Source: Lysinibacillus louembei
Lineage (GTDB): Bacteria > Bacillota > Bacilli > Bacillales_A > Planococcaceae
Assembly (NCBI RefSeq): GCF_033880585.1
Contig: NZ_CP137624.1
Span: forward strand, 2,162,001-2,226,000
Reading direction: 5' to 3'
Length of the DNA stretch: 64,000 nt
Shown here: positions 22,415 to 23,406 of the stretch, one piece after another
How positions within the stretch are numbered: position 1 is the stretch's first letter
How the letters are laid out: each line of letters begins with the position of its first letter
Translations under genes and position numbers: made by a program
Notes under the pieces: generated by a model
Databases searched by the model: none
Seen by the model: the letters and a program-made list of their open reading frames with translations, nothing else
Told to the model about the DNA's origin: nothing

Positions 22415-22461
22415 TTACGCGAACCTTAAGTGCCCATAAATATATGGGGAGGTTCGCGTAA
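22415..22461 (+). other. CRISPR leader hairpin A
   Basis: 11-bp perfect stem TTACGCGAACC (22415-22425) / GGTTCGCGTAA (22451-22461), with an inner CCCAT/ATGGG stem (22433-22448). It ends 111 nt before the first repeat of array A. It aligns with hairpin B at 22755 (GCGAA..T.AAG.G..CAT.A then GGGGA..TTCGC). On the + strand it is followed by an A-run, not a T-run, so it is not a standard terminator for the VOC gene. Confidence 0.65.
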
Positions 22462-22572
22462 AAAATAATAGTATAACTTTAATTTTAAGTAATAATCTAT
22501 TGGATATAAGCTAAAGTTTATAACTTTTTCTAAATATAGACGATGCCATAAATAATTAATCTATATATTGCG
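22462..22572 (+). other. AT-rich CRISPR leader A
   Basis: 111 nt, very AT-rich, without an ORF, directly before the first repeat of array A. Landmarks shared in order with leader B are GGATA (71 nt before the repeat) and ACGATG..ATAAAT (33 nt before it). Confidence 0.6.
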
Positions 22573-22736
22573 GTCTCTCTCTGTATGGAGAGAGTGGATT
22601 GAAATACATCCGCATGATCTACGGCATGCCCGTGAAACAGTCTCTCTCTGTATGGAGAGAGTGGATTGAAATTTACGGTGTGAAACGTGCATACCAAGAA
22701 TTATTGTCTCTCTCTGTATGTAGAATGGATTAGAAA
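22573..22736 (+). CRISPR. CRISPR array A (type I-C-like repeat), 2 spacers
   Basis: Full 33-nt repeats at 22573-22605 and 22640-22672, then a degenerate terminal repeat at 22706-22736 that has lost 3 bases in the stem region. Spacers are 22606-22639 (34 nt) and 22673-22705 (33 nt). The repeat begins GTCTCTCTCTGTATGG and ends GTGGATTGAAAT, the I-C-like 3' end. Positions 3-10 and 15-22 form an 8-bp stem with loop GTAT. Repeat decay at the right end and the leader at the left give left-to-right orientation. No cas gene lies in the window. Confidence 0.95.
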
Positions 22737-22754
22737 AATAAAAAGAGTTAGATG

Positions 22755-22803
22755 TTGGTGCGAATGTGAAGCGAACATGATTTTCTAAGGGGATTCGCAC
22801 CAA
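22755..22803 (+). other. CRISPR leader hairpin B
   Basis: 11-bp perfect stem TTGGTGCGAAT (22755-22765) / ATTCGCACCAA (22793-22803), ending 113 nt before the first repeat of array B. It is related to hairpin A, but three stem pairs differ by compensatory change (C-G to T-A, A-T to G-C, C-G to T-A). A's, not T's, follow it. Confidence 0.65.
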
Positions 22804-22916
22804 AAAGAAGCAAGAAATTCTATATACAAGAGAAAAGAATTAGGATAATATTACCTTATAAATTAATTTTTAAGTGAAAAACGGTGATAAATGTTACTTT
22901 TATGCGCTTTTTCACA
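22804..22916 (+). other. AT-rich CRISPR leader B
   Basis: 113 nt AT-rich leader without an ORF before array B. GGATAAT lies 74 nt and ACGGTGATAAAT 36 nt before the first repeat, colinear with leader A. Confidence 0.65.
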
Positions 22917-23406
22917 GTTTCTCTCTGTATAGAGAGAATGGATTGAAATGCCTGCTTCTGCTTCCGATATTGCAGCAGTTGCAGTTTCTCTCTGTATAGA
23001 GAGAATGGATTGAAATCGACCTGTCAAATGCAAATTTAACGGGTTCGAATGTTTCTCTCTGTATAGAGAGAATGGATTGAAATTCGCTTGACGGTTGTTA
23101 GTAGTCCTTGTTTATGTTTCTCTCTGTATAGAGAGAATGGATTGAAATAGCGTATCGATGTAATTACGGGGCAAATTCTGTAGTTTCTCTCTGTATAGAG
23201 AGAATGGATTGAAATAATAGGAGAAATGATAATATCCCTTGTGATAAAACGTTTCTCTCTGTATAGAGAGAATGGATTGAAATTCTACGTCTTTTGTTAT
23301 TTCACTAGATAAAACAATGTTTCTCTCTGTATAGAGAGAATGGATTGAAATCTTAAATTATGAACAACAAGAATATCTTGATGGAGTTTCTCTCTGTATA
23401 GAGAGA
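22917..23406 (+). CRISPR. CRISPR array B (type I-C-like repeat), 7 spacers
   Basis: Seven identical 33-nt repeats start at 22917, 22984, 23051, 23116, 23183, 23251 and 23319. A truncated eighth (23386-23406) keeps only its first 21 bases. Spacers are 32-35 nt. The repeat begins GTTTCTCTCTGTATAG and ends ATGGATTGAAAT. It differs from the array A repeat at positions 3, 15 and 22; 3 pairs with 22 and 15 with 10, so the hairpin is preserved. Leader on the left. No adjacent cas genes, so interference would need Cas proteins encoded elsewhere. Confidence 0.97.

What the first reader, a model, noticed from the sequence alone, without database searches (positions are those of the whole stretch)
22415..22803. 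Two related hairpins at matched distance before two CRISPR arrays, with compensatory base changes
Seen: stems TTACGCGAACC/GGTTCGCGTAA (22415-22461) and TTGGTGCGAAT/ATTCGCACCAA (22755-22803), each 11 bp and perfect. They end 111 and 113 nt before the first repeat of arrays A and B. Aligned on GCGAA they share T.AAG.G..CAT.A in the loop side and GGGGA..TTCGC on the 3' side. Three stem pairs differ by double changes that keep pairing. Both are followed by A's, so neither is a normal terminator. Inference: a conserved leader element, either an inverted protein-binding site for spacer integration, an RNA structure at the end of a former cas2 transcript, or a processing site. I have a vague memory of similar hairpins at some type I-C leaders but cannot verify it.
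Basis: partly seen in the sequence, partly recalled or inferred. Interest (0 to 1): 0.85.

Follow-up and report, generated by a model that had tools for sequence, protein, structure and literature searches.

The report
Phased docking sites before CRISPR arrays
The two hairpin-like sequences are inverted DNA signposts found before nearly every type I-C CRISPR array examined, held at helically phased distances, and they most likely show the spacer-inserting Cas1-Cas2 machinery where to add new memories of viruses; they are probably not RNA hairpins.

Summary
In detail: two perfect 11-bp inverted repeats lie 111 and 113 nt before two type I-C arrays. The element is not local. In this genome a covariance model finds nine strong copies, all before I-C arrays. 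It follows cas2 in about 105 of 110 I-C loci and recurs in other phyla. It marks arrays served by the Cas1c module, including type III-A and I-G arrays with unrelated repeats.

It behaves as double-stranded DNA, not RNA. Half-sites GTGCGAA/TTCGCAC sit 35-36 bp apart. Their distance to the first repeat falls into six classes about 10.9 bp apart with empty valleys. The DNA between has 10.5-bp periodic A/T tracts. A third GGTTCGC half-site lies 48-49 bp before the repeat in 26 leaders. G·U mismatches are not favoured over A·C.

The 'compensatory' changes are two leader lineages: array A matches a second I-C system whose Cas1 was not found in this genome.

Best explanation: an integrase docking site for Cas1-Cas2(-Cas4), with the leader wrapped or looped, analogous to I-F leader inverted repeats. 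Cas1 residue 129 covaries with the half-site, so Cas1 may read it. I-C leader motifs have been catalogued before, in papers I could not read; phasing, portability and the Cas1 link may be new.

The parts
22415..22461 (+). Leader inverted repeat of array A (lineage-2 type; half-sites ACGCGAA 22417-22423 and TTCGCGT 22453-22459)
   Evidence: matches leaders L341/L342 of a second I-C lineage
22428..22439 (+). Conserved central block of inverted repeat A (consensus AAGYGnACATRA)
   Evidence: sequence logo
22462..22572 (+). Leader spacer of array A, 111 bp; no A/T periodicity of its own (p 0.95)
22573..22672 (+). Array A: two perfect I-C type repeats (22573-22605, 22640-22672)
22706..22738 (+). Degenerate terminal repeat of array A
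   Evidence: family D2
22755..22803 (+). Leader inverted repeat of array B (half-sites GTGCGAA 22758-22764 and TTCGCAC 22794-22800)
22769..22780 (+). Conserved central block of inverted repeat B (consensus AAGYGnACATRA)
22804..22916 (+). Leader spacer of array B, 113 bp, with ~10.5-bp A/T periodicity (p 0.0045)
22917..23351 (+). Array B: seven perfect I-C type repeats
23386..23406 (+). Truncated last repeat of array B (leader-distal end)

Best explanation
The 'hairpin' is a double-stranded DNA docking site in the leader of type I-C CRISPR arrays. Two inverted half-sites (GTGCGAA/TTCGCAC, 35-36 bp apart, with an asymmetric AAGYGnACAT block between them) are bound by the I-C adaptation complex Cas1-Cas2(-Cas4). 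The ~115-126 bp of DNA between them and the first repeat carries helically phased A/T tracts and is bent or wrapped, so the docked complex reaches the leader-repeat junction in the right rotational register and inserts the new spacer there. Shown here: conservation, position, phasing, A/T periodicity, third half-site, co-distribution with Cas1c, presence on foreign repeat types. Inferred: that Cas1-Cas2 binds it, that the DNA is wrapped, and that integration needs it. Array B should be served by the resident Cas1c; array A, of another lineage, is probably frozen.
For: Element directly after cas2 in about 105 of 110 I-C loci, in Desulfovibrio, Rhizobium, Zymomonas, Thermus, Deinococcus, Treponema and Bacteroidota plasmids, and before cas-less arrays. 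Distance to repeat in six classes (103.7, 115.6, 126.0, 136.7, 147.2, 158.6 bp), period 10.9; 0 of 2000 smoothed nulls reach it, also after thinning. A/T periodicity 3.7 times shuffles at 10.5 bp, absent in AT-matched controls. Third half-site at -48/-49 in 26 leaders. Fixed arm spacing. No wobble bias, 20 G-U vs 14 A-C, p 0.39. Cas1c co-occurrence odds ratio 31-54. Same leader on III-A and I-G arrays in genomes with Cas1c. Cas1 residue 129 tracks half-site sequence: N with GTGCTAA, E with TCCGCAC (7 of 9 E systems), D with canonical. In I-F, Cas2 binds leader inverted repeats during integration (PMC12259127).
Against: No binding or integration experiment here. In-vitro I-C work used a target with only 10 bp of leader (PMC6519985), so the site is not needed for minimal target binding. 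A few leaders lack a clear 3' arm (L020, L036, L045, L128). Window leader A shows no A/T periodicity. The Cas1-129 link has exceptions (L332, L340, L057), was picked among many columns, and the tree-corrected test is underpowered (p 0.125-0.25). A phased activator site for the pre-crRNA promoter would also show helical phasing.
Confidence: 0.8

Rival explanations
1. Binding site for a transcription activator or repressor of the pre-crRNA promoter, phased to the promoter rather than to the integration site.
For: Phased distances are also typical of activators (own knowledge); Csa3a binds a leader-distal motif (-143 to -94) in Sulfolobus and affects both transcription and adaptation (PMC9456107).
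Against: No regulator gene is shared by the loci; the site recurs across phyla and in an archaeal MAG, so the binder is probably encoded by the Cas module; register is kept to the leader-repeat junction; third half-site at -49 and TTTTYGC at the junction; Cas1c co-distribution including III-A and I-G arrays.
Confidence: 0.1
2. RNA hairpin: structure in the cas2-array transcript acting as attenuator, stabiliser or processing site.
For: Perfect stems, covariation in the 9-bp core, strong predicted folding.
Against: No G-U preference; pairing beyond 8-9 bp at chance; position -1 is often A-C with the 3' C conserved; helical phasing and A/T periodicity; present without cas2; no Rfam family.
Confidence: 0.04
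3. IHF/HU-type host protein site: the inverted repeat itself is read by a host architectural protein.
For: I-E and I-F leaders use IHF; A/T phasing suggests bending.
Against: GTGCGAA is not an IHF consensus (own knowledge); half-site variants change with Cas1 lineage and residue; both flavours coexist in one genome. A bender may still act on the A/T spacer.
Confidence: 0.05

Closest known systems
Upstream motifs of I-C, I-E, I-F and II-C CRISPR leaders (Santiago-Frangos et al. 2021, Curr Biol; Buyukyoruk et al. 2025, CRISPR J)
   Same: Conserved upstream leader motifs, some in I-C, with phase reported as important (2021 abstract, own memory). Probably includes this element.
   Different: Neither paper is held. 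I cannot say whether they report the six distance classes, the A/T periodicity, the -49 half-site, the link to Cas1c residue 129 or use by III-A and I-G arrays.
Type I-F leader inverted repeats bound by Cas2 in the IHF-folded leader (PMC12259127 and works it cites)
   Same: Inverted repeats in the leader contacted by the integrase; folded leader.
   Different: I-F sequences and spacing were not compared here.
Leader-anchoring sequence of type II-A
   Same: Leader DNA guides integration.
   Different: LAS lies next to the repeat; this element is 100-160 bp upstream. The II-A array of the same genome gave no model hit.
Csa3a leader-distal motif in Sulfolobus I-A (PMC9456107)
   Same: Leader-distal motif (-143 to -94) needed for efficient adaptation.
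   Different: Bound by Csa3a, a regulator not seen in the I-C operon read here.

Membership tests
Type I-C CRISPR leader element | Adjacent to I-C repeats (GTCGCACCC...GTGGATTGAAA type) | tested here: met
Type I-C CRISPR leader element | Follows cas2 of a full I-C operon in the same genome | tested here: met
   cas3-cas5c-cas8c-cas7-cas4-cas1-cas2, element, array
Integrase upstream motif | Conserved sequence and constant distance to the leader-repeat junction | tested here: met
Integrase upstream motif | Helical phase kept when the distance changes | tested here: met
   six classes, period 10.9 bp, 0/2000 nulls
Integrase upstream motif | Bound by Cas1-Cas2 and needed for acquisition | not testable with these tools
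   only indirect: co-distribution and Cas1-129 covariation
IHF-dependent leader | IHF consensus in the leader | not tested
   no IHF scan run; A/T periodicity measured instead
Structured RNA | Covariation with tolerance of G-U over A-C | tested here: not met
   20 vs 14, p 0.39
Structured RNA | Match to a described RNA family | tested here: not met
   no Rfam match above gathering score
Intrinsic terminator | Stem followed by a T run | tested here: not met
   followed by A

The most novel reading that the evidence does not exclude
Cas1c itself reads the half-sites base by base (residue 129: Asp/Glu facing C, Asn facing A), and the leader is a nucleosome-like wrapped segment of about 10-15 helical turns that works without IHF; arrays of other CRISPR types are recruited to the same integrase simply by acquiring this leader.
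Probability: 0.4. Interest if true: 0.8.

Novelty: new variant of a known kind. Interest (0 to 1): 0.62.

Why it matters
How integrases find the right array in bacteria that lack IHF is an open question (stated in PMC9456107). I-C is a common subtype, and the in-vitro work read here used a target with only 10 bp of leader (PMC6519985). The element gives exact half-sites, a phase rule and a candidate contact residue, so the question becomes directly testable. It also offers a portable tag predicting which orphan or foreign-type arrays a given Cas1 can extend, useful for annotation and for molecular recorders.

Tried and rejected
RNA hairpin or terminator. Link between half-site and the CRISPR repeat stem: rejected, the half-site stays GTGCGAA-like while repeats vary, even on III-A/I-G repeats. 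E. coli Cas1 alignment to place residue 129: ambiguous there. Looking for the B. halodurans leader through a family search: not found. More TCC variants in the phylum sample: none real, so the variant is rare. Literature searches: the two key motif papers are not held. Position-specific search of Cas2 for the half-site link gave nothing clean.

Full report
Observation. The two inverted repeats are as described: 22415-22461 and 22755-22803, 11 bp and perfect, 111 and 113 nt before the first repeats of arrays A (22573) and B (22917). They fold well as RNA (z -5.9 and -3.1), but no Rfam family matches.

Genome context. The genome holds a full I-C operon (cas3, cas5c, cas8c, cas7, cas4, cas1, cas2; genes named by my reading of the translations, cas1 and cas2 also by family search). 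The cas2 stop is followed after about 13 nt by GGTGCGAATGCCAAGCGAACATGATTTTCCTAGAGGATTCGCACC, then 115 nt, then the array. A covariance model R1, built from 70 elements, finds nine strong copies in this genome (E 1e-13 to 1e-9), all before I-C arrays, eight of them without cas2 directly upstream. The adjacent II-A (Cas9) system gives no hit.

Spread. Cas2 was used to fetch 30 Bacillota loci and 80 loci from the species collection. About 105 of these 110 carry the element, usually starting at the cas2 stop codon. Plasmid-borne I-C systems of Desulfovibrio, Rhizobium, Zymomonas, Thermus, Deinococcus, Treponema and Bacteroidota carry it too; a cyanobacterial Cas2 locus, a Streptomyces locus and an IS-disrupted Lacticaseibacillus locus show no clear copy. 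In 398 genomes of the class, 105 hits were read with their surroundings: 97 sit before a CRISPR repeat, and four or five of the remaining eight sit before visibly decayed I-C repeats.

DNA or RNA. Five tests point to DNA. First, the distance from the 3' half-site to the first repeat in 160 non-redundant leaders falls into six tight classes centred at 103.7, 115.6, 126.0, 136.7, 147.2 and 158.6 bp (SD up to 1.5), with near-empty valleys; the best period is 10.9 bp, R = 0.72, and no smoothed null of 2000 reaches it, also after thinning to 93 leaders. Second, the A/T content between element and repeat has a 10.25-10.5 bp period within single leaders (3.7 times shuffles, z about 30) and in register across leaders; AT-matched window segments, cas1 coding and far-downstream segments do not show it. 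Third, the two half-sites are almost always 35 or 36 bp apart. Fourth, G-U does not exceed A-C (20 vs 14, p 0.39) and covariation ends at the 8-9 bp half-site. Fifth, the supposed loop AAGYGnACAT is as conserved as the arms (G13 2.0 bits, C18 1.9). The coupled changes of the arms then mean two copies of one recognition sequence.

Third half-site. Outside the inverted repeat, TTCGC occurs 58 times in the leaders against 8 in shuffles. 22 are the TTCGC that ends 1 bp before the junction and 26 end exactly 48 or 49 bp before the repeat, all in one orientation, mostly GGTTCGC. Nearly all of these leaders belong to the 126-bp class.

The element follows the adaptation module. Cas1c (TIGR03640) and the element co-occur across 398 genomes (odds ratio 31 for strong hits, 54 with weak hits). 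Two of the 'Cas1c only' genomes inspected (G359, G535) hold what looks like a diverged copy. Four genomes carry the element and the GGTTCGC half-site before arrays with unrelated longer repeats; the loci identified by family search belong to III-A (Csm1/Cas10, Csm3) and I-G (Csb1, Csb2) systems in genomes with Cas1c. So the leader marks which integrase serves an array, not which effector uses it.

Two flavours in the window. A second I-C lineage in related genomes (L341, L342; Cas1 57% identical to the resident one) has leaders TAATTACGCGAACC...GGTTCGCGC and the junction CTATATATTGCG|GTC, as in array A. Only one Cas1c was found in the window's genome. Array A, with two perfect repeats, one degenerate repeat and a leader without A/T periodicity, is therefore probably an orphan of the other lineage.

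Who reads it. Comparing Cas1 and Cas2 columns with half-site variants singled out Cas1 residue 129: N in both GTGCTAA/TTAGCAC systems, E in seven of the ten systems whose 3' half-site is TCCGCAC and in only two others, D nearly everywhere else (Fisher p 1.6e-8, not corrected for kinship or for choosing the column). E129 changed about six times on the Cas1 tree and TCC about seven; independent pairs never go the opposite way, but they are too few for significance. Of three new TCC cases found afterwards with their Cas1, one fitted and two did not. This fits Asp/Glu-cytosine and Asn-adenine contacts (own knowledge). It is a lead, not a proof. The solved B. halodurans Cas1 (8d3l; organism from PMC6519985 and own knowledge) has E129, giving a clear prediction for its leader.

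Mechanism. Best explanation: Cas1-Cas2(-Cas4) docks on the inverted half-sites while the leader is wrapped or looped over 10-15 helical turns, placing the integrase on the junction in fixed rotational register. The closest parallel is type I-F, where Cas2 binds leader inverted repeats in an IHF-folded leader (PMC12259127). Earlier I-C biochemistry used 10 bp of leader (PMC6519985), so the site's role was not tested there. Binding and need for integration remain inferred.

Novelty. I-C leader motifs and the importance of phase have been reported (Santiago-Frangos 2021, by memory of the abstract; Buyukyoruk 2025, cited in PMC12259127); neither could be read here. The inverted repeat as such is probably catalogued. 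The quantised distances, A/T wrap signature, -49 half-site, use by III-A and I-G arrays and the Cas1-129 link may be new.

Noticed in passing
L245 4536 (-), 13992 (-); L246 5260 (-), 15992 (-); L248 498; L249 7993: Type III-A and I-G arrays with quite different, longer repeats carry the I-C leader inverted repeat and the GGTTCGC half-site; their genomes encode Cas1c.
   Followed up: yes
L015 1801-2832 (-), Cas1 residue 129: Cas1c residue 129 (D/E/N) covaries with half-site sequence; solved B. halodurans Cas1 has E129.
   Followed up: partly
L341, L342: A second, diverged I-C lineage (Cas1 57% identical) in genomes of the same genus and family, with its own leader flavour that matches array A of the window.
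   Followed up: partly
L015 11800-18371: A type II-A-like system (Cas9, Cas1, Cas2, probable Csn2) sits about 10 kb from the I-C array in the same genome; its array gives no model hit.
   Followed up: partly
L193, L199, L192, L205: Some genomes of the class hold several I-C arrays within 10-20 kb, each with its own element, often in the 137, 147 or 158 bp distance class.
   Followed up: no
L244 801 (-); L242 801 (+); L236 801 (-): Element-like hits without any visible CRISPR repeat nearby; may be relics or chance.
   Followed up: no
window 22561-22803 (-): An 80-aa open frame runs antisense through array A and inverted repeat B; probably meaningless.
   Followed up: no
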